Positions 6,896 to 58,339 of a stretch of 64,000 nt of DNA are shown here, one piece after another. The notes beneath the pieces were generated by a model that searched no databases, had not been told where the DNA came from, and worked only from the letters and a program-made list of their open reading frames with translations. The translations under genes were made by a program, and so were the position numbers. The DNA is from a virus. Position 1 is the first letter of the stretch; every line of letters begins with the position of its first letter. The stretch spans positions 1 through 64,000 of the IMG/VR virus record IMGVR_UViG_3300036766_002288. One strand, 5' to 3'.

Positions 6896-7942
6896 ACAAA
6901 AATATTTCTTCACATCCCCAATGATACCGCGTGCAGTCTTTATAGGGGAATACTTCCATTAGCACATTGCTATAGTGAATTAACAAAGCATGATATTTGG
7001 CTTATTGGTGACAAAGCCCCTATGAAAGAAGAAGAATTCACCCATTACATATTTAATCGCATTATTAACAAAGATTTCTTTGCCCAGCATGTTGAGCAGT
7101 ATATCAGAGAAGATAAGAAATTAATATGGCAAACTGACGACGATATATGGAATATACCGCCTTGGAATCCAAGTTCCAAGTTAGTAACTCGTGACCTTAT
7201 CGAGTCAACCACTTATTTCATGCATAAATCTAAGAAAATTATTGTTAGTACAGAGCCGCTTGCTCGTTTGATAAACATGCCAGATAAAACAATTGTTTTA
7301 CCCAACTTGATTGACAAGTCCTACTTTAATATGAACTTAGAAAAAGAAGAAGGTCCAGTTAAGATAGTTTGGGCAGGGTCAGTGTCTCATGCAGATGATT
7401 TGGAAGAGATTATTGAGCCGATGATTAAGATATTGGAGAAATATAAAGAAAAGGTGTTTGCTATATTTTGGGGATATCTCCCAACTGGATTGTCGTATTT
7501 TGAACGTGAGCCTGGATTCCCACACGCAAATATAGTGCCTAAATTTCCTAATTTGTTTTATGGGGAATGGTTTGCTGGTAGGGTTTACTATCAAAAACTT
7601 ATGCAGCTTCAGACTGATATAGCTATAATGCCTATTAGTGACTGCCAATTTAACTACTCTAAGAGTAACCTAAAATATCTAGAAATGTCTATGAGTGGGG
7701 CAGCATGTATAGCCACTAAATTACCACCATATGAATGCATTAAACACAATGAAACTGGCTTATTAGTTAATCCTGGAGATAAAGACGCTTGGTTCAATTA
7801 TATGGAAGAATTGATTGAGAATAAAGATTTAAGACTTAAATTAGCTAGGAATGCACGTCAACATGCAATAGAAGAATATTCTTGGCAATGTTCTAAAAGG
7901 GACAAGTGGGTTGAAGCTTTCTTAGAAATTAGTAAATTATAA
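6893..7942 (+). CDS. Glycosyltransferase, GT-B fold, GT4-like
   Basis: A 349-residue protein. The N-terminus MTKIFLHIPNDTACSLYRGI is the usual first strand and loop of phage GT4-like enzymes, which fixes the start at 6893. The C-terminal nucleotide-sugar domain has VKIVWAGSVSH, IMPISDCQFNYSKSNLKYLEMSMSG and an acceptor-side ETGLLVNP loop. It adds a sugar from an NDP-sugar to an unknown acceptor (DNA, virion protein or host glycan). It sits next to an RmlC-like gene and an aminotransferase, which fits a small glycan-tailoring set, though that link is inference. Confidence 0.8.
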   Translation: MTKIFLHIPNDTACSLYRGILPLAHCYSELTKHDIWLIGDKAPMKEEEFTHYIFNRIINKDFFAQHVEQYIREDKKLIWQTDDDIWNIPPWNPSSKLVTRDLIESTTYFMHKSKKIIVSTEPLARLINMPDKTIVLPNLIDKSYFNMNLEKEEGPVKIVWAGSVSHADDLEEIIEPMIKILEKYKEKVFAIFWGYLPTGLSYFEREPGFPHANIVPKFPNLFYGEWFAGRVYYQKLMQLQTDIAIMPISDCQFNYSKSNLKYLEMSMSGAACIATKLPPYECIKHNETGLLVNPGDKDAWFNYMEELIENKDLRLKLARNARQHAIEEYSWQCSKRDKWVEAFLEISKL

Positions 7943-8218
7943 GGATTTGTGAATCTTAACAGGGTCTTTCTGAGTTTGTTCTTTAGCGGATTCTTCACCA
8001 TCCTGCCAGAAGTATGGCTTGAAAGTCCCCCAATTTGAATATGGTTTGTTTGGGCTTACATCCTTTTCGCTCATGTATGTAATAGCGTCAGCGCCCCAGG
8101 TAATAACATCTTGTGGGCAATAATTAAATATCTGGGTATACAAAGGCGGATATAAACCCGCCTTTGCTCTTGTGGACGTAGAACTATGTTCGACAAACCA
8201 TTCTTTGAAATTTAGCAT
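7937..8218 (-). CDS. Small late protein with capsid-targeting-like N-terminus
   Basis: A 93-residue protein beginning MLNFKEWFVEH, close to the T4 internal-protein peptide MKTYQEFIAEA, with FVE at positions 8-10 where T4 has the protease site IAE. The body (PLYTQIFNYCPQDVITWGADAITYM, NKPYSNWGTFKPYFWQDGEE) is not recognised. Its ATG shares one base with the stop of the frameshifted gene just upstream (TAATG at 8216-8220). It converges on the glycosyltransferase gene with a six-base overlap. Confidence 0.65.
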   Translation of the reverse strand: MLNFKEWFVEHSSTSTRAKAGLYPPLYTQIFNYCPQDVITWGADAITYMSEKDVSPNKPYSNWGTFKPYFWQDGEESAKEQTQKDPVKIHKSL

Positions 8219-17403: not shown

Positions 17404-18416
17404 AAAAGGTTACTCAACAGCACACAAGGGACAATTATAAACCCCCATCTGTAAATTTGAAAATAGAGCCTAACAAAGTCGTTAGACAAGAATTTAAAAG
17501 AGATTTGCCTAAAATTGCACCCGCCAATCTTCCATATCTTATGGATAAAGTAAGAGCGTTCATTAATCCACAAGCAAATTACTACTTAGGATTTGGCGGC
17601 TTGGGAGATGCACTACTCTTATTAGCTACTTGCTGGGATGATCCTAAAGCAAGAGTTGTATATTTTGCCAATCAAACACCATTTGTAAAACAGTTCTTCG
17701 AGTTGTTCAAAGTACCAGTCTTTTTAGAAAAAAACATCATGGGTACTAAGTTGGCTGGCCAGATATTCGACCTAATGACCCACAACCACAATTTCAAACA
17801 GTCTGCACATCTGGCAGACGGTTTATATTTTGAAGATTGGCGAAATGAAGACAAATATATCAAAAGAATAAGAAATTATGTGCCTTGGTCTAATTATCTT
17901 GGTGCAATGAAAACCAATCTTCCCACCTTAATTGTCTGTCCTTCTGGGTCTCACAAAGACCCACATAGACAGCGTTATCTAAATCAAGAAGAATACAAGT
18001 CAATTGTCAACAAAGGTTTAGATGAAGGTTATAATGTTTTTGCATCAGGTTCCATATCAGATTTGCATTACTATAAACTGATTCAAAGAGAAAACTTTCA
18101 TTGGTTAACCTCTGACAAAATATATAACTGGAATAATACTAGCGAAGATATTAATTTAAGAAAAATGCTCCAAATAATCAATGGAGCAGAAAAAGTAATT
18201 AGTATGGATACATGGCTTAAGACTTATACTTTGTTATGCAACATAAATACAGTTGTTATAAAAACAAGGTGGGACAATAATTACATCGCATATGGCAATG
18301 ATGTAACTGATTGGATATTTTTGAATAATAAAATTTGGCCTAATTTAGAACTAGACCAAGTAGAAAACTACTCTAATTTTTTGAGTTCGTCCCTTAACTT
18401 AGCAGCAAGTTCATAG
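17400..18416 (+). CDS. Glycosyltransferase, GT9 (heptosyltransferase)-like
   Basis: A 338-residue protein. After a basic N-terminal tail (1-55) it reads YYLGFGGLGDALLLLATCWDD, the first strand and glycine loop of GT9/GT-B enzymes, and later TLIVCPSGSHKDPHRQRYL and VFASGSISD, the second nucleotide-sugar domain. GT9 enzymes add heptose or GlcNAc to surface glycans. The acceptor here is unknown. It overlaps the CTS-like gene upstream by four bases and the opposing gene at its 3' end by 49. Confidence 0.65.
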   Translation: MKKVTQQHTRDNYKPPSVNLKIEPNKVVRQEFKRDLPKIAPANLPYLMDKVRAFINPQANYYLGFGGLGDALLLLATCWDDPKARVVYFANQTPFVKQFFELFKVPVFLEKNIMGTKLAGQIFDLMTHNHNFKQSAHLADGLYFEDWRNEDKYIKRIRNYVPWSNYLGAMKTNLPTLIVCPSGSHKDPHRQRYLNQEEYKSIVNKGLDEGYNVFASGSISDLHYYKLIQRENFHWLTSDKIYNWNNTSEDINLRKMLQIINGAEKVISMDTWLKTYTLLCNINTVVIKTRWDNNYIAYGNDVTDWIFLNNKIWPNLELDQVENYSNFLSSSLNLAASS

Positions 18417-18901
18417 TCTTCCTTCTTAATGGCCTCCGCTAAATTTTTCTTTATTGTTTCTAGGTCTGGCTTTTTTTCTTCTACTATTACTGTCTTTTTG
18501 TTTTTAGGGGACTTGCCTACATGCTTTAACGATTGATGATAGCCAAGCATGAAAGGCTCTAAATCCTTGCCGAAACATGTATAGCATTCTCCACAGCCTA
18601 CCCTACTTGTATTAGCAATGTCTTGAATGGTAAATCCACAACCTGTGCAGGTTTTAGTAGTTTTTTTAACTTCCACTGGTTGTGGATTTACAGCTGCTTT
18701 TTCTTTTATTAAGTTACTAATTATATCAAACATACTGCTAACTTCTGGTGGCATTTTGGGCGTGGGCAAACCAGTAGCTACCAGACCACACTGCACGCAC
18801 ATGCTTTTAAAGCTTTGTGCAGTAAGGTCTGGGTTTACTTCAGTAACATGTATGCACTTTTTGTGTGGACAAGGCAAACCACTTAAAGGACAATTTTCCA
18901 T
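18368..18901 (-). CDS. McsA-like protein: zinc fingers plus UVR motif
   Basis: A 177-residue protein. The N-terminal part has CPLSGLPCPHKKC and CVQC, the middle CTGCGF and CGECYTC, and residues about 147-177 form a UVR helix pair (KKNLAEAIKKEDYELAAKLRDEL). Zinc fingers followed by a UVR motif are the plan of McsA, the partner of the McsB arginine kinase in stress response. It may bait or mimic host McsA, but this is inference. It overlaps the exported gene upstream by one base. Confidence 0.7.
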   Translation of the reverse strand: MENCPLSGLPCPHKKCIHVTEVNPDLTAQSFKSMCVQCGLVATGLPTPKMPPEVSSMFDIISNLIKEKAAVNPQPVEVKKTTKTCTGCGFTIQDIANTSRVGCGECYTCFGKDLEPFMLGYHQSLKHVGKSPKNKKTVIVEEKKPDLETIKKNLAEAIKKEDYELAAKLRDELKKLE

Positions 18902-19434
18902 TACTTGTCTCTCTTAATTAACTTGTTTTTATCGTTATAAGATTTGACATTTTTCATAAAGAATTCTTTTTCTTCATCAGTAAACTTATCAGAATACTTC
19001 TTAAATAGACCTTCCAACATCCCCTCTAACTTAACGGCATTTTTCTGTCTTAGTTCAAACAGTTTTTTAGAAAATTCTTCTACATCCTTTTTACTTGCTT
19101 CATCCGCATCGTCTGGAGATTCCTCTGAGTTTTTCAATTCTTCTTTCCACTTATCCTGTACATCACCAAGGTCTATTGCTAGGGTTTGGCCATGAAAGAC
19201 CTTTAAGAAGGCACGTTCCATTTCACTAAAATCTGTGAATTTCTTTTTTTCATTTGTACTCTTATTTGTAAATTCCTGATTTTCGAAATATTTGTCTGTT
19301 GAATATTGGTCAACAATTTTTTCAACCTTTTTTAAATAGGTTTCAAAATCCTTTTTTTCTCTAGCTTGTGCCAAATTTGCAAATAGGCATAAAAAGGCTA
19401 TCGCAGCTACGGAAGCTTTCAATATGGTTCTCAT
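18901..19434 (-). CDS. Exported helical protein
   Basis: A 177-residue protein with a clear signal peptide (MRTILKASVAAIAFLCLFAN, cut after LAQA). The mature part is charged and helical (FSEMERAFLKVFHG, ELKNSEESPDDADEASKKDV, EGLFKKYSDKFTDEEKEFF). It acts in the periplasm or outside the cell. No family was recognised. It heads a two-gene set with the McsA-like gene. Confidence 0.65.
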   Translation of the reverse strand: MRTILKASVAAIAFLCLFANLAQAREKKDFETYLKKVEKIVDQYSTDKYFENQEFTNKSTNEKKKFTDFSEMERAFLKVFHGQTLAIDLGDVQDKWKEELKNSEESPDDADEASKKDVEEFSKKLFELRQKNAVKLEGMLEGLFKKYSDKFTDEEKEFFMKNVKSYNDKNKLIKRDK

Positions 19435-19472: not shown

Positions 19473-20414
19473 TCATGGGTAAGTTGCATCAATAGTAATT
19501 TGGAAATCATCCAAAAGTTTTGCCATTTGTCCCTGTCTTGCCAAAGCACCAAATGCTGGGTCTGGGAATGGTAAAGTTCGTCTGATCCACAATGGAACAA
19601 AGTCTCCTGGTCGCAAATCCCCTACTCTTACAGGATTGCCCCTAAGATAATAATTAAATGGAATCCCATCTGGTGGTGTAATTTCATCTGGTATTGTGGT
19701 TGCGACTGTGTTAACTGGACTCCCATCCTGAACTGGAAACGGCGTTACAGTACATCCTTGCAGATTATTGCTTACAACTGTAATTAAGTCTATTAGGCGA
19801 TGACTAGCCTGCGTCCACCTAAAATGATCTTGTGTTCCATGTTCTCCAGCATTAGTGGTTTCATGACCACCATAATCAATTGTAAATGTAACATTTGGCA
19901 CTATTCCTACTGCTTTCACAACTACTTCTGGCATACCTTCCACTGCTCGTATTGCTGTTTGGAAATTGCCAACCCACTCAGTTATATTAGGCGAATAGAA
20001 GACTTTAAATGTTGAAGGATAGCCTGGAACCTGTAATTCGAAATATTCACCTTCAAAAGGTGGTGACAGGCCATTAACTACAACCTGCTGGATTTCATTT
20101 TTAAGTAAAACACCAATAGCAACATAAGTCCCTCCAAGATGCCCAGGCACACCACTGCCTGTGCCACTTAGGTATATAATAGCATTTCTTAACGTGTAAG
20201 TATCTGAGATGTTTTTAATATAAAAACATCTATAATCTTCGTGTCCCTTGCGACTAAGTTTGGGACCGATGGAATGAAATAGGTTATCAAGCTCATCGCA
20301 AGTAATATCACAACTAGATATTACGCCGCCTAAGTCATTACATGGGTCGCAATTTGATGGACCCGCTGAATGTTTAAAAGCAATACAACCACAACTGGCT
20401 GGCGTGCATGTCAT
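19473..20414 (-). CDS. Putative virion structural protein (paralogue of 20425-21636)
   Basis: A 313-residue, strand-rich protein. It shares with its neighbour the blocks NDLGG, EDYRCFYIKNISDTYTLRNA, GSPVNTVATTIPDEITPP and VGDLRPGDFVPLWIRRTLP, in the same order. The series of beta segments and the WIRRT end look like a phage virion surface or fibre-type protein seen in large phages. Cys-rich start: CTPASCGC. AGGTG precedes the ATG. Its role in the particle is unknown. Confidence 0.6.
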   Translation of the reverse strand: MTCTPASCGCIAFKHSAGPSNCDPCNDLGGVISSCDITCDELDNLFHSIGPKLSRKGHEDYRCFYIKNISDTYTLRNAIIYLSGTGSGVPGHLGGTYVAIGVLLKNEIQQVVVNGLSPPFEGEYFELQVPGYPSTFKVFYSPNITEWVGNFQTAIRAVEGMPEVVVKAVGIVPNVTFTIDYGGHETTNAGEHGTQDHFRWTQASHRLIDLITVVSNNLQGCTVTPFPVQDGSPVNTVATTIPDEITPPDGIPFNYYLRGNPVRVGDLRPGDFVPLWIRRTLPFPDPAFGALARQGQMAKLLDDFQITIDATYP

Positions 20415-20424
20415 ATTTCACCTC

Positions 20425-21636
20425 TTATGATAAAGGCCAATTTACAGCTGTGGCCACTAGTCTTAAACTAAAAAAGACTTGTAAGCATGGACCTGCACCT
20501 GCTGGCGTAATTCTTTCAACCCATATATAAAACCCTTCGTTGGGTTTTAAATTTCCAATATATTTGGCATTCATGTCTAAGCCAGTCGTTTCTGGCACTT
20601 CTATGTCTGTTTTAATTGGCTTTGCATAGGTGTTTATTGGGCTACCTTGTGTTTGCTTATAAATACATACCTGACAATTTTTATCACGTATAGGAGCTTC
20701 TATTACGCCCCAAGGCACAGCTAGTGTTGTGTCGGTTACTGGACTGTTGACAGTTCCTCTTTGCCAGTTTTGTGGATCATCAATATTGCCCCAAGGTGGA
20801 CAATTACCAATAAATCCTACCATATTAAACAACAAAGGCGTTGTTAGAGTGAATATGTCGCCACTATAACCACTATAGGGGTATACATCCCATAAGCCAG
20901 TTAATGGATTATAAATTCTTAAATCCCCAGAGGGTTGTACATAATGACTTATTGGGTACACAGTCTTAACTTGGAAGTCTCCATAACCATTCCAAGGGTC
21001 ACATGAGAAATAGGTAACTGTATTATATCTTCCAACGCCTTTGATTAATAAGTCATTTTGGATAACACGCATAGTTTGCACGTTTCTATGCCCAGCTTCA
21101 CCAGTGAACGTAACGGTATATGGGTTAGCGCCAACCACAGTAACTGCACTACACCAAGGAAGTTCATTTAATCTTGCTTGTAGATCAACTCCAAATTGAA
21201 CAAAATCAGTCCAGTAGACGGTAAAAGGAGGACCAAATTCAGTGTCAAATATTATAAAACCACCTGGGTCAGGTTGCATTTCAAACCCAACACAATTGAT
21301 TTGTACAATTTGCACATCATCGACTAATTTTGACCCAAAATTAACAACAGGTCCAGTTTCTGGGACACCCGAGCATGGGGGTGGACATTCAGTAATTGTC
21401 ATGCTAGCATTTTCTATTGCTGTGGTTGGGCTTGGATTCCAGATATAGAAACAACGATAATCAGTCATTCCGATTTGGGCTTCTTCTGGCATCACGTCAT
21501 CGAACAAGTTATTCATGACATTAGGCTCGCCTGGCGGCTCACCTGATATCTCAAACTTGGAGGGGAAAGCTCCTAAATCATTGGAAGGTTCTTTGTTGAA
21601 AGAACCGCCTGAATGTAACCATTGTAAATCAGCCAT
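20425..21636 (-). CDS. Putative virion structural protein (larger paralogue)
   Basis: A 403-residue protein with the same end blocks as its neighbour (TDYRCFYIWNPSPTTAIENA near the start, GNLKPNEGFYIWVERITP at the end) and an extra central beta region of about 90 residues. Tandem paralogues of unequal length suggest duplication and insertion of a domain. Its start overlaps the HTH gene by eight bases. Confidence 0.6.
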   Translation of the reverse strand: MADLQWLHSGGSFNKEPSNDLGAFPSKFEISGEPPGEPNVMNNLFDDVMPEEAQIGMTDYRCFYIWNPSPTTAIENASMTITECPPPCSGVPETGPVVNFGSKLVDDVQIVQINCVGFEMQPDPGGFIIFDTEFGPPFTVYWTDFVQFGVDLQARLNELPWCSAVTVVGANPYTVTFTGEAGHRNVQTMRVIQNDLLIKGVGRYNTVTYFSCDPWNGYGDFQVKTVYPISHYVQPSGDLRIYNPLTGLWDVYPYSGYSGDIFTLTTPLLFNMVGFIGNCPPWGNIDDPQNWQRGTVNSPVTDTTLAVPWGVIEAPIRDKNCQVCIYKQTQGSPINTYAKPIKTDIEVPETTGLDMNAKYIGNLKPNEGFYIWVERITPAGAGPCLQVFFSLRLVATAVNWPLS

Positions 21637-21934
21637 TTTTCACTTTAGACAAAATATATCTGACATTTCTTGGAGTATAACCAGTCAATTCCGCGATTTG
21701 CTGTATGCTCATACCATAATTGAAAAACTCAACAACATTTTTGTGATTAGCTTTTAACCTGTTAGGGATTACGTTGAAACTATGTATTGTTCGGTAAATT
21801 TCACCAATAGATTTGCCTGTAATCTCTGCAATCTCCTTCATTTTCATGTCAGGAGAATGCATATACAAACTCACAAGTTCCTGATCGGAATAATCATTTT
21901 CCTTGTGGGTAAAAAATTCTTTAAAACTTTCCAT
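21629..21934 (-). CDS. Double helix-turn-helix protein with CTS-like N-terminus
   Basis: A 101-residue protein. It begins MESFKEFFTHKEND, a good capsid-targeting-like peptide, followed by two HTH motifs: MKEIAEITGKSIGEIYRTIH (about 32-51) and SIQQIAELTGYTPRNVRYIL (about 75-94). Such paired HTHs occur in resolvase or sigma-like DNA-binding proteins. A packaged, sequence-specific DNA binder would be unusual. Late octamer TCTAAATA ends six bases before the ATG, and no Shine-Dalgarno site is seen. Confidence 0.7.
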   Translation of the reverse strand: MESFKEFFTHKENDYSDQELVSLYMHSPDMKMKEIAEITGKSIGEIYRTIHSFNVIPNRLKANHKNVVEFFNYGMSIQQIAELTGYTPRNVRYILSKVKNG

Positions 21935-21940
21935 ACAATC

Positions 21941-21948
21941 TATTTAGA
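21941..21948 (-). promoter_or_regulatory. Late promoter octamer TCTAAATA
   Basis: Read on the minus strand, six bases (GATTGT) before the ATG at 21934. It implies a message starting about one base before the start codon. Confidence 0.55.
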
Positions 21949-21997
21949 GATTGATTAAGAAAGAAATGGTGAAAAATGGGTGTTACTTTTCTTCTTT

Positions 21998-22117
21998 TAG
22001 AGCAAGAGCCATATCTTGTTGACTCAACAACTCCACTTTTTTGTTATTCTTTTGTGCCCAATTTATCACTCTTAACATTAATTTTTCTTTTATTTTTAGA
22101 AGCCAAAAATTTTTCAT
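21998..22117 (-). CDS. Possible 39-residue peptide (weak)
   Basis: The ATG at 22117 reads MKNFWLLKIKEKLMLRVINW and continues to AQKNNKKVELLSHK. It sits 7 bases downstream of a sigma70-like promoter. One extra T near 22019-22021 would change the end to SQQDMALALKEEK, which looks more natural, so another indel is possible. Otherwise the 268-base gap from 21935 to 22202 holds only the promoter and a terminator. Confidence 0.35.
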
Positions 22118-22123
22118 GGGCAC

Positions 22124-22152
22124 ATTATAATAAAGATAAATTTAAAAAGCAA
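22124..22152 (-). promoter_or_regulatory. Sigma70-like promoter
   Basis: On the minus strand TTGCTT (22147-22152), a 17-base spacer and TATAAT (22124-22129). Transcription would begin about at the ATG at 22117. Confidence 0.5.
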
Positions 22153-22202: not shown

Positions 22203-23015
22203 TTACTTTTTCCTGGTCTTATTCACATGCTTGGTCGCCCATTCATTAAAACTTCCTGGACCACCGATTTTCTGAGTAGGTGCATAACCAACTTCGCCTG
22301 GTGCAGGCTCAGTGTTTGCTGACTTGTTAGTGTCTTCTGGTGCAATTAAAGTATCTTCATCAACTGGAACCCAATAACCCTCTTCGTCCTTAGCAAACTT
22401 AGTTCCACCTGTCATATCCCTTAATTTAGCAAGGAAGCTGTTCTCTTCCTTTTCTTCTTTCGCCATCATATTACACTTGGAACATTTACCCTTTTGCTTA
22501 TACTTGAGCATGTCCGCACCGTTAGCAGAATTCTGTTTCTTGTCTTTCTCATCAACGGCATCTTTGCCTTCTTTTTTCATCATCATTGGTGGCTTTGCGC
22601 CCATGTCACCGCCTCCAAATGGTGGCTTTTTCTTCTTATCCATAGGTGGTGGTGGACCTTCTTCTCCATCGCCTTCATCACCCATATCATCATGGTCCTC
22701 ACCGTCTTCATCATGGTCATGATCTTCTTCATCGCCGTCTTCATCATGGTCCTCACCGTCTTCATCATCACCCATATCATCATGGTCATGATCTTCTTCA
22801 TCGCCGCCCATATCATCATCATCGGTGGCATCGGCACCGCCCATATCTGGGGCCATACCTGGGTCTTCACCTGGCATAGGCTTCTTGGCTTTTTTCATCA
22901 TGCCAAAAAGTCCAGGGGCTTCGTTTACTGAACCAACAATATTTGCAGACTTGACACCTAGATTTGTATAGCCAAGATTTTCCTGCAAAATTTTCCAAGT
23001 CTTATATGATATCAT
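22203..23015 (-). CDS. Asp/His/Glu-rich repeat protein with CTS-like N-terminus
   Basis: A 270-residue protein starting MISYKTWKILQENLGYTN, with LQE at 10-12. Residues about 55-120 are imperfect acidic repeats (DDMGDDEDGEDHDEDGDEED-type), which could bind divalent metal. Then come Met/Pro/Lys-rich linkers, a CSKCNMM pair and an ordered tail ending GSFNEWATKHVNKTRKK. It resembles a prohead core or scaffold protein in composition. CATAAATA and GGAG lie upstream. Confidence 0.65.
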   Translation of the reverse strand: MISYKTWKILQENLGYTNLGVKSANIVGSVNEAPGLFGMMKKAKKPMPGEDPGMAPDMGGADATDDDDMGGDEEDHDHDDMGDDEDGEDHDEDGDEEDHDHDEDGEDHDDMGDEGDGEEGPPPPMDKKKKPPFGGGDMGAKPPMMMKKEGKDAVDEKDKKQNSANGADMLKYKQKGKCSKCNMMAKEEKEENSFLAKLRDMTGGTKFAKDEEGYWVPVDEDTLIAPEDTNKSANTEPAPGEVGYAPTQKIGGPGSFNEWATKHVNKTRKK

Positions 23016-23738: not shown

Positions 23739-23957
23739 ATGAAAACATTTTTCCAGTGGGCAAAAGATAAGAAATATGAGATTCCAGTAATGGAAAAAAC
23801 ATTGAGAACGGGTATCCACACGGCAATGCCAAGAGGCTATATTAGAAGTCAATATCCTGACGGTTACTTTGCTCCAGTAATTGGAACATGGGAACTAGAC
23901 TTGAAGAATCAGGATAAATTTGTCAAAGACAAGGCACCGTCAGATGGCGCACCTTAA
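23739..23957 (+). CDS. Small late protein with CTS-like N-terminus
   Basis: A 72-residue protein starting MKTFFQWAKDKKYEIP, a clear capsid-targeting-like peptide. The rest (TLRTGIHTAMPRGYIRSQYP, FAPVIGTWELDLKNQDKF) is compact and basic. It has a CAGGAG site. The terminator that follows is shared with the opposing gene. Confidence 0.65.
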   Translation: MKTFFQWAKDKKYEIPVMEKTLRTGIHTAMPRGYIRSQYPDGYFAPVIGTWELDLKNQDKFVKDKAPSDGAP

Positions 23958-25749: not shown

Positions 25750-26613
25750 TTAATTTACACCAATTTGCCTTAGCCATTCTAAAATACTCTGTCTTTCATA
25801 CACTGAAAGCTGAAATTGCGTTTCTTTTGGGGGCATATGGCCCCTAGCAACTTCTTCTTTAACTTTTAACCAATTAACATTTTGGTTCAAATGTCCAATC
25901 TGAGTATAGATTTGGAACTCCTTTTTAGCTCCTACCCCCGTATGGCATTGGGCACATGTCCTACCAAATGCGTTAAAAACCACCTGCGTTAATTGTTGAT
26001 CGGGTTGCCTGGGAGCCTGTGATTGTTGTGGTTGTGGTTGTGGTTGTGGTTGTGGTTGTGGCGTACCAGGAACGGGTGGAGGGCCACCATCAGAAGTTCC
26101 ATCTGCCATCTTATTCATTTCCTCCAACAACGCTTTAGCAAGTTCTCTAATTTGATCTTTCCTGCTAAGACCCAGCTGTTGTTGCTGTTGTTGCTGTTGT
26201 TGCATGTTATATGCATTGGGTTGCTGATATCCGTATGGTTGTGTTTGCATCCCATAACCATATGGTTGAACTGCCGCTGGATAAGCACCCTGCTGCACGA
26301 CAGGATAAGCTTGTGGGTATCCTGTTACAGGCACGGTCGGCACTGCATATGTGGTTGGGACATATTGAAACTGAAATGCTGGAACCAAAACAGGATATGC
26401 AAAAGTTGGTGTGCATATTGTTTCTACTACGGGGGCGCATACTGTAGTGCAGACGGTATTGCAAACTGGCGCACATACTGTTCCGCAACTCACTGGCGCG
26501 CAGCGACCTCTAAATATTCCACACCTTCTTCCGAAGGCAAAGGCATCGCTGCTTGCAAAAAATAGACTAATCGCTCCTACTGCTAATAATGTTATAAGTA
26601 CCCATTTTCTCAT
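25750..26613 (-). CDS. Exported protein with C-terminal c-type cytochrome domain
   Basis: A 287-residue protein. It has a signal peptide (about 1-26, MRKWVLITLLAVGAISLFFA), then a Cys-rich stretch (CGTVCAPVCNTVC), a Tyr/Pro/Gln-rich linker with poly-Q and (PQ)n, and a C-terminal domain at about 218-287. That domain has the haem motif CAQCH (220-224) and a likely axial Met in RGHMPPK (Met260), the usual cytochrome c order. It probably binds haem outside the cytoplasm. Phage cytochromes are hardly known. It resembles planctomycete c-type proteins, so recent acquisition is likely. Confidence 0.75.
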   Translation of the reverse strand: MRKWVLITLLAVGAISLFFASSDAFAFGRRCGIFRGRCAPVSCGTVCAPVCNTVCTTVCAPVVETICTPTFAYPVLVPAFQFQYVPTTYAVPTVPVTGYPQAYPVVQQGAYPAAVQPYGYGMQTQPYGYQQPNAYNMQQQQQQQQQLGLSRKDQIRELAKALLEEMNKMADGTSDGGPPPVPGTPQPQPQPQPQPQQSQAPRQPDQQLTQVVFNAFGRTCAQCHTGVGAKKEFQIYTQIGHLNQNVNWLKVKEEVARGHMPPKETQFQLSVYERQSILEWLRQIGVN

Positions 26614-26632: not shown

Positions 26633-28486
26633 TTATGGCTTCGGTATAGGAATAAGTGGTCCAGGTGGGAACTGATCCGCATGATCTAATCCTTGCTTCC
26701 TTGCCATAATTAAAATCATAAATCTCTGGAATGAATGCTCCCATTGGTCACGTTTAATGGGGCGGATCGGGCTACGCAATAACCCTAGAACCAAATTGTC
26801 CTTACTAGCCTTTATATATCCATCTAATTGGTTAAATTCTACACCAATATCTCTGGAAACCTCTTCATGTGTTAAAAGGTTCTCAATATAATTGTTGTAT
26901 ATCTCGCTCATGACTCTGGATACAACTTCTGATTGCAAACCAGTTGACCTAGAAACAGCATCACGATACAGATTTTGGTCTGCAACTATTTGCCTATCTA
27001 AGTCGGAACCAAATAAATCTTCAATCTTATAAAAATCTTCTTTCCTAGTTACCAATAACTTAAGTTCTCTAGGATTCTTTAATTTGTTTGTCAATGCGCG
27101 AACTTCGTCATTAATTGGTCTAATACCATCAGCATGACAAATCATACAACTTCTTCCTGGTCGTACCAGTCTGTCAACTGAACCATTATCAAGAGCAATT
27201 TCAGGATTAGCAAAATCAACTCTTTTCCCTTTACCATCCGTTAATAAATAAGCTTGCAGTCCATTTGGCAACGTTCCTATTTCTTCGGTTGCATCAAATT
27301 GCTCACGCAATAAGAATTGAACGTAATTCCTATCATCTACTGATTTTAATGAATCATGGCTTCTCCAGATATAGCCGCCCGTAAAAGTAGGGCTTCTATT
27401 TAGAGTCCTATTGTTTCTTGCAACCATTGAAGTTACAACAACAGCTTTATCCTGTGATCTTGCTTTTTCAGCAAGTTTTTCATCTGCAAAAATTAACTTG
27501 TCAAAATCTTCTGCTTTATCTCCTAGTTTCAAGAAATCATAGTAGGCTGGAGGGACTATAACATTTGACATAAACCAATCTCCTCTATAGATTGGAAAGT
27601 CAGAATGTGTGTTGCTCATCAATGTTTGATAACCTAACGGGTCTAACCAAGGCACCTTACAATCAATTACAAACTTTCTTTTATTAGAAACTGTTTCTTC
27701 TACTTCTACGTCCTCTAGAGTGACTACTTCTTTAAAAATCTGCTGACCACGTTGGTCATATTGATTAGTAGGAACTTTCTTAACTTTTTCTACCTGCTTC
27801 TTAACCTTTACCTTTTCAAAAACAGGTTGTTCTACGAACATATGGAAATAAGGTTCTGGCTGTGGATGGACTCCACTACCTTTAAGACCTAATTTCTCCC
27901 ATGCTTCAGGGGTCCATTCATAATCATTGATATTTAAACGAATCAAGGTTTCATCACTAGCCCCTACAAATTCTGGGATGTACATCTGTCTTCGTGTACT
28001 TAGAGAATTACACACGAAGGATAAGGCGGCAGCATATTCTTTCCTTTTGGCTTTTGGTATGTTATAGAGAGATATATAACGTATGTAAGGTCGCATTTCT
28101 ACTGGCAGTGATAATAAGTCACCAGTAGCAAATACAACTGCACTATTAGGCCCATATAAAATTTCAGGTGGTGGATTTAAATTAGGTGGCCCAACATTAG
28201 GCAGAGAATTAACCTGCTGATTAACAGGTGGTGTATCACTCACTTGTGGTGGCGGCGTTGGCGGCTCCACAAGTTTAGGCGGACCATTGTTAACTAATTG
28301 ACTATTTTTAGGCAACGAAACATCAACCCGTGGTGACGTAGTATTAATCACAGGTTGCGTTTTAACTTGCAAATCAGGAGTAGAAGTCTCAACTTTACGG
28401 TCTGCGTTGCGTGATGCTGCTGTTACGAATACTAAGACAGCAGCAACAATCGCTACACACGACATAATAACACTAAATTTTTTCAT
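26633..28486 (-). CDS. Large exported protein with a CxxCH haem motif, planctomycete-like
   Basis: A 617-residue protein. It has an N-terminal signal or anchor (MKKFSVIMSCVAIVAAVLVF), a Pro/Val-rich linker (about 30-110), then a folded body. One CMICH motif lies at 447-451 in GRSCMICHADGIRPIND, so covalent haem binding is likely, though the distal ligand is unclear. The body contains GGYIWRSHDSLKSVDDRNYV and similar blocks that I associate with planctomycete proteins. It lies 19 bases upstream of the smaller cytochrome-like gene, so the two may act together. Confidence 0.65.
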   Translation of the reverse strand: MKKFSVIMSCVAIVAAVLVFVTAASRNADRKVETSTPDLQVKTQPVINTTSPRVDVSLPKNSQLVNNGPPKLVEPPTPPPQVSDTPPVNQQVNSLPNVGPPNLNPPPEILYGPNSAVVFATGDLLSLPVEMRPYIRYISLYNIPKAKRKEYAAALSFVCNSLSTRRQMYIPEFVGASDETLIRLNINDYEWTPEAWEKLGLKGSGVHPQPEPYFHMFVEQPVFEKVKVKKQVEKVKKVPTNQYDQRGQQIFKEVVTLEDVEVEETVSNKRKFVIDCKVPWLDPLGYQTLMSNTHSDFPIYRGDWFMSNVIVPPAYYDFLKLGDKAEDFDKLIFADEKLAEKARSQDKAVVVTSMVARNNRTLNRSPTFTGGYIWRSHDSLKSVDDRNYVQFLLREQFDATEEIGTLPNGLQAYLLTDGKGKRVDFANPEIALDNGSVDRLVRPGRSCMICHADGIRPINDEVRALTNKLKNPRELKLLVTRKEDFYKIEDLFGSDLDRQIVADQNLYRDAVSRSTGLQSEVVSRVMSEIYNNYIENLLTHEEVSRDIGVEFNQLDGYIKASKDNLVLGLLRSPIRPIKRDQWEHSFQRFMILIMARKQGLDHADQFPPGPLIPIPKP

Positions 28487-29167: not shown

Positions 29168-30004
29168 TTAATTAGGTACAATAGGCACTTCATCAGCTGG
29201 GGTATTATCTTGTGGGTCATCTATAATTGCTTGAATTGCAAAAGCGTCTGGGTTCATCATGTTGAAATGACCCCTTTGCAAATAACAATGTCCATTCTTA
29301 CCAAAATTACTACCCCAACTATTCTGTATCTTAATTAGCCAGCCATATTTAGCTGATTTCTTGAGGCCCATGCCCAATACACAATGACCACCACCACCAC
29401 CTGCTGGCAACGGGGCAACACCTTCACTATCTAAATTTGGGAAATTATTGCCAACATATAATCCAAGAGGACATACAAAACCCAACGTAATTGCAGAACA
29501 AATGTCCTCGAAAGTCTGACAATGATAAGCCTGAGCCAGCTTAAATCTCTTAGCAATTTCAAAAGCGGTTGGCGGGAATTGATTTTGGAACATCGTTCCT
29601 GCTGGTATATCCCCTAATCGACAGATTCCATATTGCATTAAAGCTTTTAACGCATCGGAGATTTGTGCCCCTGCATCCCTTCCACCATTAATTAACCCAT
29701 ATGCAAAGAATGGCGTAAATGGAACCAATGGTCTTCCAGATTGCTTATAGCACATCTCCATACCCGAACATGTCCCATGTCCTACACAACTACTAGTCAT
29801 GCCCTGATTTAGAATCGGTAAGTTGTACCATTCTAAATCAATTTCCTGCCATTGCGATGGATCAAGGGTCGTAGCCATTGCTGACCCAAATTTTGGAAAC
29901 TCCTTTATGGACTCAGAAGTTTCGGGGATACATGCTAAAACTCTATAAAATCCATCGAATTTAATAGAAGGTAAATTACTAATTGAATACTTGCCTATAT
30001 GCAT
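29168..30004 (-). CDS. Papain-like cysteine protease (C1A family)
   Basis: A 278-residue protein. The active-site plan is complete: Gln67 and Cys73 in LNQGMTSSCVGHG, His207 in GGGGGHCVLGMG and Asn228 in IQNSWGSNFG. There is no signal peptide and no long propeptide, so it would be active in the cytosol unless exported another way. Proteins of this subtype (WYNLPILNQ...FAYGLINGGRDAG) are, as I recall, frequent in planctomycetes next to Ig-like exported proteins, as here. The start overlaps the upstream stop (TAATG). Confidence 0.8.
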   Translation of the reverse strand: MHIGKYSISNLPSIKFDGFYRVLACIPETSESIKEFPKFGSAMATTLDPSQWQEIDLEWYNLPILNQGMTSSCVGHGTCSGMEMCYKQSGRPLVPFTPFFAYGLINGGRDAGAQISDALKALMQYGICRLGDIPAGTMFQNQFPPTAFEIAKRFKLAQAYHCQTFEDICSAITLGFVCPLGLYVGNNFPNLDSEGVAPLPAGGGGGHCVLGMGLKKSAKYGWLIKIQNSWGSNFGKNGHCYLQRGHFNMMNPDAFAIQAIIDDPQDNTPADEVPIVPN

Positions 30005-30902: not shown

Positions 30903-31901
30903 ATGTCCACTCACACTTGTCCAGTTGTACCAATTGTGCTGGAAAAACACGATAATGCTGATTCCTTGTCCATTGTTAGGGTCAAGGGCTTTATCTATGT
31001 TGCTCGCACACAGGATTGGGTCAATCATCCGCTTGGCGTTTGGATTGAACCAGATATGGTTGTGCCCGCTGATCGTCCAGAATTTGCTTGGCTGGAAAAA
31101 TCTCATAAACTCATTGAGAACAATGGGGTTAAAGGCTACCGTATTAAGGTTAAGCAGCTTCGTGGCGTTATGTCTATGGGTCTAATGACTCCTGCACCAG
31201 AAGGTACTAAGGAAGGCGACGACCTTATGTCGCATTTTGGTATCGTTCGATACGAACCACCGATGCCGCTTTCCACTTACGGAGAAGCTACTAAACCGCC
31301 GCCAGGTGTCCGCTACTCTTACGACGTGGAAAATGCTTACAACTTCTCTCACCTCTTTACTGATGAGGAAGAGATTGTTGCCACGGAGAAAGTGCATGGT
31401 GCCAACGGTCGGTTTGCTTATGTGCCCGATATTGGAATGTTTGCAGGGAGCAGAACCGAATGGAAGCGACAGAATGATACTAACCTTTGGTGGAAAGCAT
31501 TAGAGAATAACCCAGAAGTTGTAGAGTTCTGTAAAGCTAATCCCGAAATCACCGTATATGGCGAAGTATACGGTCAAGTGCAAGACCTTACCTATGGTTT
31601 TGAAAAAGGCAAGGTTGCTATCATTGTATTCGACCTTCTTCGTAATGGCGAATGGATCAACCACGACGAAGCTAGGGAAATTGGTAAAACTCTTCCTTGG
31701 GTACCGATTATTTACCGTGGGCCTTGGAACAAAGAAAAAATCTTTGCTATTGCAGACGGTAAGTCTGAGGTCGCTAAAGTAAAGGGGAAAGACCAAATTC
31801 GTGAAGGTATTGTTGTTAAACCGCTCAAGGAACGTAGCAATCTTGAAATTGGTCGGACTCAAATTAAGATTGTTTCCAATGCTTACCTTGAACGGGCGTA
31901 A
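30903..31901 (+). CDS. RNA ligase (nucleotidyltransferase superfamily)
   Basis: A 332-residue protein that seals RNA ends through lysyl-AMP. The adenylation motif is EKVHGANGRF with Lys163. Then follow GEVYGQVQDL, FDLLRNG, REGIVVKP (motif IV) and IKIVSNAYL (motif V). An N-terminal domain of about 130 residues precedes it, as in the Deinococcus RnlA/Rnl5-like subgroup rather than T4 Rnl1 or Rnl2. It is followed by a Thg1-like gene, suggesting tRNA repair. Its strong ribosome-binding site suggests early expression. Confidence 0.85.
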   Translation: MSTHTCPVVPIVLEKHDNADSLSIVRVKGFIYVARTQDWVNHPLGVWIEPDMVVPADRPEFAWLEKSHKLIENNGVKGYRIKVKQLRGVMSMGLMTPAPEGTKEGDDLMSHFGIVRYEPPMPLSTYGEATKPPPGVRYSYDVENAYNFSHLFTDEEEIVATEKVHGANGRFAYVPDIGMFAGSRTEWKRQNDTNLWWKALENNPEVVEFCKANPEITVYGEVYGQVQDLTYGFEKGKVAIIVFDLLRNGEWINHDEAREIGKTLPWVPIIYRGPWNKEKIFAIADGKSEVAKVKGKDQIREGIVVKPLKERSNLEIGRTQIKIVSNAYLERA

Positions 31902-31951: not shown

Positions 31952-32770
31952 ATGGCATCTGATAAGACTGAAATTGGAAATCGCATGAAATACTATGAAG
32001 GGTTTGAAACTCGTCGTAGACTTATGCCTTTAAATCCTGCTGTCTGCCGTTTAGATGGTAAGAATTTCCACAATTTTTGTCGTGGTTTAGAAAGACCTTA
32101 CGATGAACGCCTATCATCATTAATGTGTGACCTTACTACTTTCCTTGCCAAGGAGTTTTGCGCAGTTGCCGCCTATACTCAAAGTGATGAAATTACTCTT
32201 GTGTGGAATCAGGAAAGGTTTGATTCTGAAATCTTCTGTGATGGCAAGATTCAGAAAATGAATTCTTTATTGGCAGCTAGAACTTCTGTCAAATTTAATT
32301 CATTACTGTCCCAATACATTCCAGAAAAAGTCAGTATGGAACCGATCTTTGACTGCCGAATTTTCTCTTTGCCGAACACTACGGAAGCTGCCAACGTGTT
32401 CTTGTGGAGAGAAATTGATGCTGCGCGTAACAGCGTTCAAATGGCAGGGCGTGCTTATTTTTCTCATAATGAAGTGCAGGATAAGAATGGTTCAGAAATT
32501 CAGGAAATGCTTTTCTCAAAAAAGAACATTAACTGGAATGATTATCCTGCGTTTTTTCGCAGAGGTAGATATATATTACGGAGAATTAAAAAAGGAATAT
32601 TGAAATTTGAAGAAATAGAAACACTGCCACTAAAACACCACGCCCGCAGTAATCCAGAATTAGTTTGTGAACGAAATGTTTATGAAGAAGTTCATTTACC
32701 ACCGTTAAGGAAAATAGTCAATCGAGAAAGAGTTTTATTTTATAATGAGGAACCTAAAACAAAGGAATAG
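31952..32770 (+). CDS. Thg1-like 3'-5' RNA polymerase (tRNA-His guanylyltransferase family)
   Basis: A 272-residue protein that adds nucleotides to RNA 5' ends in the reverse direction. The palm motif RLDGKNFH (33-40) carries one metal-binding Asp, and TQSDEITLVW (76-85) the second acidic pair. The later HNEVQDKNG-type region is also typical of Thg1. Bacterial and phage members (TLPs) repair 5'-truncated tRNAs rather than adding G-1. An RNA ligase directly upstream supports a tRNA repair pathway against anticodon or acceptor nucleases. Confidence 0.85.
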   Translation: MASDKTEIGNRMKYYEGFETRRRLMPLNPAVCRLDGKNFHNFCRGLERPYDERLSSLMCDLTTFLAKEFCAVAAYTQSDEITLVWNQERFDSEIFCDGKIQKMNSLLAARTSVKFNSLLSQYIPEKVSMEPIFDCRIFSLPNTTEAANVFLWREIDAARNSVQMAGRAYFSHNEVQDKNGSEIQEMLFSKKNINWNDYPAFFRRGRYILRRIKKGILKFEEIETLPLKHHARSNPELVCERNVYEEVHLPPLRKIVNRERVLFYNEEPKTKE

Positions 32771-34131: not shown

Positions 34132-34235
34132 TATGGCTCTGCTAGTAGTTCGGCTACCTTCGGTACTAGCCCCGTAACGGAGTCATCATTATGCTGTGGC
34201 ACCATTCGTCCGCTCGTCAACTGACCATACTATTT
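34126..34235. ncRNA. Structured 110-base intergenic element (RNA or complex terminator)
   Basis: An 11-bp closing stem, AAATAGTATGG (34126-34136) with CCATACTATTT (34225-34235), encloses a hairpin GCTAGTA/TACTAGC (34141-34147, 34164-34170) and CCG/CGG (34172-34180). UUCG-like loops are visible. The two closing arms overlap the stop codons of the converging genes. It is much more elaborate than the other terminators in the window. No tRNA pattern fits. Confidence 0.45.
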
Positions 34236-34744
34236 TAACTCTTCGGTCCTCTCTTCAAAGGCACAGGCTTCAGCTTTTCCATGTGACGGTCTGGTTTACC
34301 TTTAAGTTCGTGCATCATATTATAGACTTGTTTTGTAATTTCGAAAGCGTTCTCGCCTTTGCACTTCTCACTTGATTGCACACTAATTGTTTTTCTGTCT
34401 TTATTATAGAAGCCTTTGGACACTACGAAGCATTTGTGGGCAGGATTCCATGATACCACACAGACCCATTCGCCATCGTCCCAATTCCTGCTAGAGACCA
34501 ATACTCTTATTGGATTTTCGCCATAAACATGTTTAATATGGAAATTATGCTGTTTCAAGCCCGCCGAAACATACCCCAAAGCGATTTTGGCAAAACCATC
34601 TAGCACTTCATCTGGTTTGCTGCGGAAATTGACTTCGATGCTATATCTGGTGGCATTTGAACTCTCATTTAGCTCATCAGCCTGGACCATTAATAAAATA
34701 TCACCGACAGCGTGTTCATCAATATAATCTCTGAAATTTAGCAT
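34235..34744 (-). CDS. Late protein with CTS-like N-terminus
   Basis: A 169-residue protein. The ATG at 34744 starts MLNFRDYIDEHAVGD, an excellent capsid-targeting-like peptide with IDE at positions 8-10, exactly where T4 internal proteins have IAE. The remainder is an alpha/beta domain (RYSIEVNFRSKPDEVLDG, GEWVCVVSWNPAHKCFVV, FEITKQVYNMMHELKG) of unknown family. It is divergent from another CTS-like gene across a shared TATATATA. Confidence 0.7.
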   Translation of the reverse strand: MLNFRDYIDEHAVGDILLMVQADELNESSNATRYSIEVNFRSKPDEVLDGFAKIALGYVSAGLKQHNFHIKHVYGENPIRVLVSSRNWDDGEWVCVVSWNPAHKCFVVSKGFYNKDRKTISVQSSEKCKGENAFEITKQVYNMMHELKGKPDRHMEKLKPVPLKRGPKS

Positions 34745-39579: not shown

Positions 39580-39759
39580 ATGGAAGAATTATCTTTTAAA
39601 AAATGGTTGATGGAGATGGGTGGCGCAACCGATGCCATAGTCGGCAGTTGCGCCTCAACTGCTGACTACCAAGTTCAAGGTGCGTGTAGTGATTTAAAAG
39701 CAAGAAAACCCAAGAGAAAAAAGAATGAACAATCTATCCCAGATGCTACAAAATCCTAA
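39580..39759 (+). CDS. Very small late protein with CTS-like N-terminus
   Basis: A 59-residue protein whose ATG lies one base after the stop of the 1182-residue gene. It starts MEELSFKKWLMEMGGATD, with LME at 10-12, a CTS-like peptide shifted by two residues. It is then Cys/Ser-rich (VGSCASTADYQVQGACSD), with a basic tail (KARKPKRKKNEQ). It overlaps the next gene by 35 bases. Confidence 0.6.
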   Translation: MEELSFKKWLMEMGGATDAIVGSCASTADYQVQGACSDLKARKPKRKKNEQSIPDATKS

Positions 39760-46398: not shown

Positions 46399-46406
46399 TA
46401 TTTAGA
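46399..46406 (-). promoter_or_regulatory. Late promoter octamer TCTAAATA
   Basis: On the minus strand, 17 bases before the ATG at 46381 and overlapping the stop of the sigma factor gene, with AAGGAG in the leader. Confidence 0.55.
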
Positions 46407-46932
46407 ACTGACCTTTGGCAACGTAATTATTGGGATTGTTAGGTTTGTGTTTTAGTAGAACTTTTTCAACTTGGCTTTGTAAGAAATCGTGATATTTTTT
46501 CTTCAATTCGTTATAATTACGGGCAGTACGGTACAATTGTCGATAATGGTTTAGTATGCAAGTAGTCATATAATTGAATGCTTTGCCTTTAAGAGGGTCA
46601 AAACGATCAATTTTTTCAAAACAAATCATTACGCCTTCTTGTATAGCATCATCCATGTCTATCAAGTTAAATTTTCTTACAATGTTCTCCGATAAAGTTA
46701 AGAAAGCAACAGCTAATTGTGTCTGGGAGTCACTATAGGATTGTTTGGCTGTTGAATACAAGTCAGTTAAATTTTTCAATTTTTGATGAATTACAACGTT
46801 CTTATTCCCTCGCTTCTTTGACGCCTCTAAATCTTCAATACATATCTCGTATTTGATCTTTTCCCTTTTAGACTGTTGAAACCTATTAATAACTTCCTCA
46901 AATATTCTGTTATTAAGATATTCTGTACTCAA
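46402..46932 (-). CDS. Late sigma factor (T4 gp55-like)
   Basis: A 176-residue protein that directs host RNA polymerase to late promoters. Residues about 93-135 form the region-2-like core: DMDDAIQEGVMICFEKIDRF followed by DPLKGKAFNYMTTCILNHYRQ, aligned with gp55 and sigma70 region 2. The N-terminal half is a charged helix. It lacks regions 3 and 4, as expected for gp55. NNTAAATA octamers across the window are the likely targets. Confidence 0.8.
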   Translation of the reverse strand: MSTEYLNNRIFEEVINRFQQSKREKIKYEICIEDLEASKKRGNKNVVIHQKLKNLTDLYSTAKQSYSDSQTQLAVAFLTLSENIVRKFNLIDMDDAIQEGVMICFEKIDRFDPLKGKAFNYMTTCILNHYRQLYRTARNYNELKKKYHDFLQSQVEKVLLKHKPNNPNNYVAKGQF

Positions 46933-54099: not shown

Positions 54100-54553
54100 A
54101 ATTATTTTCCTTCAATCTCTTTTCATACCACACTTCAAGTCTTTTCATACAGTCTGGATAGTCCTCAGAAAACACTATGGACAATACTCTTTCCATATCA
54201 TTATATTGTTCTTTTATTTCTTCCAATTCAGGTACAGGAGTAGGACCGAATACATCTTCCAAAATTTTCATACATGCTGCTTTTTCTTCAATTGTTTTTG
54301 GAGTCAATTCTGTTACAGGTTTTCCAGTTTCTTGTAGGTGGTAGTCTTTTTCAAAGTCTTCAAATATAATATCTGATAAAGCAAAATCTAGTGAATTAAG
54401 ATCATGTAATAACCCACAATCGCAAAATGCGCCTCTTTGACCATGCTTATTGGAAGCATAAATTCTACAGTCACAATGATGCCTGACGGCACCACCGCAA
54501 AAATATCGACGACGGATATGTAATAACTTATTTATTTCTGAATGAATACTCAT
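54065..54553 (-). CDS. Hypothetical Cys/His-rich protein
   Basis: A 162-residue protein. The N-terminal part (RRYFCGGAVRHHCDCRIYAS, GAFCDCGLLHDL) has several Cys/His pairs, probably zinc. The rest is acidic and helical. It overlaps the CTS-like gene upstream by four bases and the oxygenase gene downstream by 35. No family was recognised. Confidence 0.55.
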   Translation of the reverse strand: MSIHSEINKLLHIRRRYFCGGAVRHHCDCRIYASNKHGQRGAFCDCGLLHDLNSLDFALSDIIFEDFEKDYHLQETGKPVTELTPKTIEEKAACMKILEDVFGPTPVPELEEIKEQYNDMERVLSIVFSEDYPDCMKRLEVWYEKRLKENNYDKNASQSKTT

Positions 54554-55014
54554 TGTTGTCCCGTTGTTTGCTGGGCCATATTTGTAGGCGGTGTTGGCAT
54601 TTGTTGCACAGGGCCTGTAGGTTGACCTGGCGGCGGCGGTTCAGGAGCTTTTGGTTTTTCCTCTTCGCCAGTACCAAGTTTATTAACAGGAGTCCTTAAC
54701 TTGCCAGAAAGTTTCTCTAATTCTGCTCTTACACCATTGAAAACTTCTGGCAGATCACCTTTTTCTTCAATGGCTTTCATTAGGGCTACGCCGCATTTCT
54801 GCAATACTTTAAGGTATTTGTGTTCTGAGCGGGGCCAACTTCCATGAAGAATTCTACGAATCTGGCCCGCAATCTCTTCACTATTCTTTACTTGTTGCCT
54901 TGCACCCATCTGTTTGCCAGCTTGCAATAACTCATGAATTCCAGTTAATATATCATTTATTCTATCACCCAGATATTCTTTTTGTTCTGTAAGCAAAAAT
55001 TGTTTGAATCGCAT
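54550..55014 (-). CDS. Late protein with CTS-like N-terminus
   Basis: A 154-residue protein starting MRFKQFLLTEQKEYLGDRIN. LTE at positions 8-10 is at the same place as the T4 IAE processing site. Then comes a helical domain (LLQAGKQMGARQQVKNSEEI, HKYLKVLQKCGVALMKAI) and a Pro/Gln-rich tail. Similar proteins occur in other large T4-like phages. It follows the CTP synthase gene after five bases. Confidence 0.7.
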   Translation of the reverse strand: MRFKQFLLTEQKEYLGDRINDILTGIHELLQAGKQMGARQQVKNSEEIAGQIRRILHGSWPRSEHKYLKVLQKCGVALMKAIEEKGDLPEVFNGVRAELEKLSGKLRTPVNKLGTGEEEKPKAPEPPPPGQPTGPVQQMPTPPTNMAQQTTGQQ

Positions 55015-57565: not shown

Positions 57566-58339
57566 ATGACACAAATACTTCAGACTAAAACAAAATGGGG
57601 CGGTCTTGGATGGCACCCAGGTTTACCAAAATTCGGTTCAGCACAATATATCCCACAGGTTGCAACGCTTCCTGTATCAGTTGATCTAAGGCCAAACTGC
57701 CCAGCAGTCTATGACCAAGGACAACTAGGCTCATGCACGGCCAATGCCGTAGGTGGTTTAGCACAATTCCTGATGATGAAGGAACAGCATACTTCATTTG
57801 TTCCTTCTAGGCTAGCAATTTATTATTGGGAAAGAGTCATTGAAAACAGTGTAAGTCAAGACAGCGGAGCTTCTATTTCTGATAGTCTAGCTGTCGTCAG
57901 CAACACTGGTTGCCCACACGAATCGCTTTGGTGGTACAATATCAATAAATTTGCAGTCCGTCCAAACAATAAAGTAGTCGCAGACGCCAATAAGCACAAG
58001 ATCACAAGTGCTATGCAAGTTAACAACACTAGCTTGGCAACGATGCAATCCTGTCTAAGCAGTGGATTCCCAATTACAATTGGCTTCACTGTATACTCAA
58101 GTTTCGAATCAAGCCAAGTTGCAAGAACAGGCATTGTCCCAATGCCAAATTCGCATGAACAAATTCTTGGTGGTCACGCAGTCCTAATTGTAGGCTATGA
58201 CAATACTCGTAATTGGTTCATTGTTCGCAATTCATGGGGCGCGGGTTGGGGTGCCGCTGGTTATTTCTATATGCCTTACCAATATTTCACAAATTCTAAT
58301 TTGGCATCCGATGCATGGACAGCCAGATTAATAGCGTAA
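57566..58339 (+). CDS. Papain-like cysteine protease (second copy of the fold)
   Basis: A 257-residue protein from ATG 57566 (AAAGGAG). Active site: Gln51 and Cys57 in DQGQLGSCTANA, His204 in GGHAVLIVGYD and Asn222 in VRNSWGAGWG. There is no signal peptide, and the short N-terminus suggests no propeptide. It is divergent from the methyltransferase operon and only distantly similar to the 29168-30004 enzyme. Possible roles are virion maturation or host-protein cleavage. Confidence 0.8.
   Translation: MTQILQTKTKWGGLGWHPGLPKFGSAQYIPQVATLPVSVDLRPNCPAVYDQGQLGSCTANAVGGLAQFLMMKEQHTSFVPSRLAIYYWERVIENSVSQDSGASISDSLAVVSNTGCPHESLWWYNINKFAVRPNNKVVADANKHKITSAMQVNNTSLATMQSCLSSGFPITIGFTVYSSFESSQVARTGIVPMPNSHEQILGGHAVLIVGYDNTRNWFIVRNSWGAGWGAAGYFYMPYQYFTNSNLASDAWTARLIA

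What the first reader, a model, noticed from the sequence alone, without database searches (positions are those of the whole stretch)
21629..21934. A double HTH DNA-binding protein that carries a capsid-targeting-like tag
MESFKEFF is followed by two well-formed HTHs. A sequence-specific DNA binder delivered with the genome could act at the first moment of infection, for example on host promoters, or organise packaged DNA.
Basis: inference. Interest (0 to 1): 0.6.

Follow-up and report, generated by a model that had tools for sequence, protein, structure and literature searches.

The report
Capsid-tagged double helix-turn-helix phage protein
A small phage protein with two DNA-binding modules begins with the kind of short signal that phage T4 uses to load proteins into its head, so this giant phage may inject a DNA-binding protein along with its genome; sequence comparison supports this, but no experiment has tested it.

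Summary
It is a conserved single-copy gene of T4-related giant phages (homologues 45-66% identical, contigs up to 595 kb). Three lines support the capsid-tag reading. (1) Aromatic residues 4 and 7, the targeting determinants of T4 IPIII, are kept in the homologues; the tag is as conserved as HTH1 (52 vs 54%) across a 17%-conserved linker, and AlphaFold leaves it detached. (2) The same N-terminus occurs on about ten unrelated window proteins (9/95 genes; 0.2-0.55 expected), but not in lambda, phiKZ or SPO1 samples. (3) A T4-type late box (TAAATA) is the only conserved DNA upstream; a gp55-like late sigma lies in the window; relatives encode gp21-type protease and gp23. However, the T4 cleavage residue Glu10 is missing (His10 here, often Asp in homologues), so the tag is probably retained, or is a look-alike. 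Packaging, injection and DNA target are untested. Verdict: plausible new variant of T4-type internal head proteins.

The parts
21629..21934 (-). Tag plus tandem HTH protein (101 aa, ATG at 21934)
21911..21934 (-). N-terminal tag, residues 1-8 MESFKEFF; aromatic residues at 4 and 7 as in T4 IPIII
21779..21886 (-). HTH1, residues 17-52
21635..21763 (-). HTH2, residues 58-100; residues 84-97 (TGYTPRNVRYILSK, around the recognition helix) 85% mean pairwise identity across homologues
21941..21946 (-). TAAATA, T4-type late -10 box, 6 nt before the ATG; no good Shine-Dalgarno, so possibly a near-leaderless mRNA
21983..22117 (-). Small conserved upstream gene (ATG at 22117), adjacent in close relatives, 3-4 kb away in distant ones
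22124..22129 (-). TATAAT box (host sigma-70-type -10) just before the small gene; also present in L012 and L039
22159..22189 (-). Intrinsic terminator between the upstream tagged gene and this block
22203..23015 (-). Upstream acidic protein that also carries a tag (MISYKTWK...); its counterparts in relatives are tagged too
20425..21636 (-). Next gene, overlapping the HTH gene by 8 nt; paralogue of 19473-20414; a gene of this type directly follows in all relatives examined
19473..20414 (-). phrog_13135-type protein of unknown function, same operon
46402..46932 (-). gp55-like late sigma factor (phrog_234 4.6e-7; Sigma70_r2)

Best explanation
A late-expressed internal head protein with a T4-CTS-like tag, whose cargo is a tandem HTH. 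Made from a T4-type late promoter, it is drawn into the assembling prohead core by its N-terminal aromatic tag (F4, F7), stays in the head among the packaged DNA, probably with the tag uncleaved because position 10 is not Glu, and enters the cell with the genome, where the two HTHs bind a conserved DNA sequence and act as a transcription or genome-organising factor before phage genes are expressed. Shown by sequence: the tag, its conservation and detachment from the fold, its recurrence in the genome, the late box, the two HTHs, and T4-type protease and capsid genes in relatives. Inferred: packaging, retention, injection, DNA binding and its target.
For: Tag/linker/HTH1/HTH2 mean pairwise identity 0.52/0.17/0.54/0.61, residues 84-97 0.85; F4 invariant and aromatic 7 kept across homologues of 46-65% identity. 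T4 IPIII targeting maps to residues 4 and 7, processing to 8 and 10, and Asp10 blocks processing but still targets (PMC9026906); Asp10 is the commonest residue in the homologues. The tag recurs on unrelated proteins in the window and in LR756511 and not in lambda/phiKZ/SPO1 samples; the T4 positive control recovers IPI, IPII and IPIII. The model leaves residues 1-10 at pLDDT ~48 against 68-93 for the HTHs. TAAATA lies 4-10 nt before the ATG in 11 of 12 homologues whose upstream DNA is otherwise diverged; TAAATA precedes 21 of 95 window genes vs 4.1 expected, including tail tube and sheath stabiliser and, in LR756511, the MCP; gp55-like sigma in the window and in most relatives. gp23 and S77 protease in six relatives, gp23 24-38 kb from this gene.
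Against: No virion data. Glu10 is absent from P0001 and from most family members, and by eye only about a third of the other window tags have a T4-like xxE site, so T4-style processing is not a constant feature. The motif has false positives: T4 57B (MMEFKDF) also matches and I know of no evidence that it is a head protein. The S-PM2 sample, which includes its head genes, shows no such tags, so the signal is not universal in T4-like phages. A TATAAT box upstream could also give early expression. gp21/gp23 genes were not found on the window's own 187-kb contig, which by synteny appears to end before them.
Confidence: 0.55

Rival explanations
1. An ordinary late transcription regulator that is not packaged: the N-terminal helix docks on RNA polymerase or a partner, and the HTHs regulate its own translationally coupled operon or other late genes.
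For: Members match PHROG 'late transcriptional activator' (8 of 11) and D5-like or sigma region 4 families; the gene overlaps or abuts the next gene in the relatives; a late box lies directly in front.
Against: The same N-terminus sits on about ten unrelated window proteins, which a regulator-specific docking helix would not explain. The HTH family matches are generic and weak.
Confidence: 0.25
2. The tag resemblance is coincidental: an amphipathic first helix that belongs to this family only, with no targeting role.
For: Low-complexity four-residue core; T4 57B shows that chance matches occur; Glu10 is missing.
Against: Genome-wide excess at exactly positions 4 and 7, absent from unrelated control phages and not reproduced by N-terminal shuffles.
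Confidence: 0.12
3. A packaging-site recogniser such as a small terminase subunit, or a degenerate HNH homing-type protein that kept only its DNA-binding part.
For: Weak matches to terminase small subunit and HNH endonuclease families; HTH2 resembles the G20C small terminase HTH (Z 6.3, rmsd 1.7 over 43 residues, a common arrangement); the HATV-2 HNH protein has a similar tandem HTH before its HNH part.
Against: The large terminase is about 47 kb away in LR756511; 101 aa leaves no room for an oligomerisation or nuclease domain; single-copy and syntenic in the relatives, unlike a mobile gene.
Confidence: 0.08

Closest known systems
T4 internal proteins IPI, IPII, IPIII and their capsid targeting sequence (CTS)
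   Same: Short N-terminal signal with aromatics at residues 4 and 7 (MKTFKEF, MKTYQEF vs MESFKEF); small protein; late-type box; T4-type prohead protease and gp23 in relatives.
   Different: Cargo is a tandem HTH with no sequence similarity to the IPs found; Glu10 processing residue replaced (His here, often Asp); virion presence unknown.
Phage HTH regulators (PHROG 323 D5-like, 836 late transcriptional activator, 3855 HTH DNA-binding) and sigma region 4
   Same: HTH units with weak but significant profile matches.
   Different: Matches are partial and generic; none of the tools showed such a tag on those families.
Cbp1 CRISPR-repeat-binding protein (2lvs) and SIRV1 ORF55 (2x48)
   Same: Small tandem or single HTHs; best PDB profile matches.
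   Different: E-values 0.011 and 0.014; archaeal; a shared fold says nothing about function.

Membership tests
T4-type CTS-bearing internal head proteins | N-terminal signal with aromatic residues at positions 4 and 7 | tested here: met
   F4 and F7 here; F4 invariant and F/W7 in the homologues (one-residue insertion in L050); targeting role of 4 and 7 from PMC9026906
T4-type CTS-bearing internal head proteins | gp21-type cleavage site right after the signal (residues 8 and 10, Glu at 10) | tested here: not met
   F-T-H at 8-10 here; Asp10 in several homologues, Glu in only three
T4-type CTS-bearing internal head proteins | Phage encodes a T4-type prohead protease and gp23 capsid | tested here: inconclusive
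   present in six relatives; not found on the window's own 187-kb contig, which by synteny appears to end before that region
T4-type CTS-bearing internal head proteins | Late expression | tested here: inconclusive
   sequence only: conserved TAAATA box and gp55-like sigma; a TATAAT box upstream leaves early expression open
T4-type CTS-bearing internal head proteins | Present inside the virion head and injected | not testable with these tools
   needs virion mass spectrometry or a fusion assay
HTH DNA-binding proteins | Two helix-turn-helix units | tested here: met
   Pfam over cut-off and model
HTH DNA-binding proteins | Sequence-specific DNA binding | not testable with these tools
   inferred from 85% conservation of residues 84-97; a k-mer scan gave no candidate site
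Terminase small subunit | Gene next to the large terminase | tested here: not met
   TerL about 47 kb away in LR756511
Terminase small subunit | Match to the T4 gp16 family PF11053 | tested here: inconclusive
   no match, but nothing rang in the controls either

The most novel reading that the evidence does not exclude
Giant T4-related phages inject a sequence-specific transcription factor, pre-loaded into the head by an uncleaved CTS-like tag, so that control of host or early phage promoters begins before any phage gene is expressed; the tag census then predicts a whole set of co-injected proteins.
Probability: 0.3. Interest if true: 0.75.

Novelty: new variant of a known kind. Interest (0 to 1): 0.5.

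Why it matters
If the tag is a working CTS, N-termini give a sequence-only list of candidate head-packaged proteins in uncultured giant phages, and this one would be a packaged DNA-binding protein, a cargo type I did not find described for CTS proteins in the papers held here. It also makes a sharp prediction: targeting residues kept, processing residue lost.

Tried and rejected
Small-terminase reading: rejected mainly on location; the gp16 family search was uninformative. A search of cellular genomes with the family alignment found no relatives. A k-mer scan for an over-represented target site found nothing convincing. PDB and viral fold searches gave only generic HTH matches: no Foldseek E below 0.001; AraC-type two-HTH domains at Z about 7 over 84 residues, rmsd 3.5-4.2, within the range of common arrangements. 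Paper searches found no CTS-tagged HTH protein, in an open-access library only.

Full report
Observation. Window 21629-21934 encodes, on the minus strand, MESFKEFFTHKENDYSDQELVSLYMHSPDMKMKEIAEITGKSIGEIYRTIHSFNVIPNRLKANHKNVVEFFNYGMSIQQIAELTGYTPRNVRYILSKVKNG; the + strand is interrupted there. Pfam and NCBIfam see sigma-region-4-like HTHs in both halves. The window is the first 64 kb of a 187-kb virus record that holds one copy of the gene.

Relatives. Homologues occur in giant-phage contigs: LR756511, 595 kb, 63%, and 14 loci in viral contigs at 45-66%. None was found in one genome each of 84,980 bacterial and archaeal species at the sensitivity used. The gene is single-copy in G000, LR756511, G001, G003, G005 and G006; G007 has in addition broken remnants at its contig end. 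Order is conserved: the tag/HTH gene, then an overlapping or abutting gene of the phrog_13135 type, then, in most relatives, homologues of 18901-19434 and 18368-18901.

The tag. All homologues start M-x-x-F-[K/R/Q]-x-[F/W] (L050 has one extra residue). Mean pairwise identity is 0.52 for residues 1-8, 0.17 for 9-16, 0.54 for HTH1 and 0.61 for HTH2, and codons for the invariant residues vary. In the AlphaFold model the tag is a short helix with pLDDT about 48 while the HTH blocks reach 68-93 (pTM 0.44, so the relative placement of the two HTHs is uncertain). A conserved segment that is not part of the fold points to an interaction signal. In T4 IPIII the capsid targeting signal depends mainly on residues 4 and 7 and its processing on 8 and 10, and Asp at 10 blocks processing but not targeting (PMC9026906). 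The family keeps 4 and 7; at position 10 it has His (here), Asp (the commonest), Glu, Gln or Thr.

Is the tag a genome-wide signal? With one home-made gene caller for all genomes, 9 of 95 window genes and 11 of 171 genes from about 113 kb of LR756511 carry the pattern, against 0.2 and 0.6 expected. T4, the positive control, gives 4 of 92, including IPI, IPII and IPIII; lambda, phiKZ, SPO1 and an S-PM2 stretch give 0, and a KVP40 stretch 1. Shuffling residues 2-14 within each protein never reaches the window or LR756511 counts in 2000 rounds. The less fitted statistic, aromatic pairs at spacing 3, peaks at positions 4/7 in the window, LR756511 and T4. Caveats: the pattern was defined after seeing window examples; LR756511 shares orthologues with the window and so is only partly independent; the control stretches are samples. 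The caller itself preferred an internal start for this gene (there is no good Shine-Dalgarno), and I used the conserved start instead.

Expression. Upstream DNA of 12 homologues is diverged except for TAAATA 4-10 nt before the ATG (11 of 12; TTAATA in the other). T4 and KVP40 late promoters are TATAAATA and the S-PM2 one NATAAATA (PMC2984593). TAAATA is enriched upstream of window genes, 21 vs 4.1 expected, including tail tube and sheath stabiliser. A gp55-like late sigma lies at 46402-46932. So the gene is most likely late. The box lies so close to the ATG that the late mRNA may be nearly leaderless; this is inference. A TATAAT box before the preceding small gene in the window, L012 and L039 leaves early expression open.

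Head context. Six relatives have long gp23-type capsid matches and gp21-type (S77) protease genes, with the capsid gene 24-38 kb from the tag/HTH gene. By synteny the window's contig stops before that region. In LR756511 two further tagged proteins (1076 and 486 aa) lie next to the capsid gene.

Mechanism. Best supported: a late internal head protein loaded by an N-terminal CTS-like signal and delivered with the DNA, where the conserved HTH2 recognition region reads a specific sequence. The steps from packaging onward are inferred. Main rival: an unpackaged late regulator whose N-terminal helix does something else. The recurrence of the tag on unrelated proteins favours the first.

Verdict. 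Observation confirmed; interpretation partly supported. It may work like a T4 CTS-bearing internal protein; it is not filed as one, because the processing site is not met and virion presence is untested.

Noticed in passing
window 25750-26613 (-) and 26633-28486 (-): Two adjacent proteins with secretion-signal-like N-termini and CxxCH (cytochrome-c-like) motifs, conserved in LR756511 at 44% and 60%; the first has only a below-cut-off cytochrome match, the second none.
   Followed up: partly
window 46402-46932 (-): gp55-like late sigma factor.
   Followed up: yes
window 13369, 41154, 49861 gene starts; L034:19906, L034:48370, L035:39309: Further genes with TAAATA only 4-7 nt before the ATG, suggesting near-leaderless late mRNAs.
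   Followed up: partly
window 7937-8218 (-), 34235-34744 (-), 39580-39759 (+), 22203-23015 (-), 54550-55014 (-), 23739-23957 (+): Other tagged proteins, candidates for head packaging; 7937, 34235 and 39580 also have a T4-like xxE site right after the tag.
   Followed up: partly
L034:19906-23136 (-) and L034:23505-24965 (-): Large tagged proteins next to the capsid gene in LR756511; the second has a C-terminal phosphoribosyltransferase-like match.
   Followed up: partly
window 29168-30004 (-) and 57566-58339 (+): Two papain-family (C1) peptidase-like proteins encoded by the phage.
   Followed up: no
window 30903-31901 (+) and 31952-32770 (+): RNA ligase next to a Thg1-type tRNA-His guanylyltransferase.
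   Followed up: no
window 21983-22117 (-): Small conserved gene directly after a TATAAT box and before the tag/HTH gene in close relatives; function unknown.
   Followed up: partly
G007 C1:122470-122639 (-): Broken remnants of a second HTH copy (one in-frame TAG) at a contig end.
   Followed up: no
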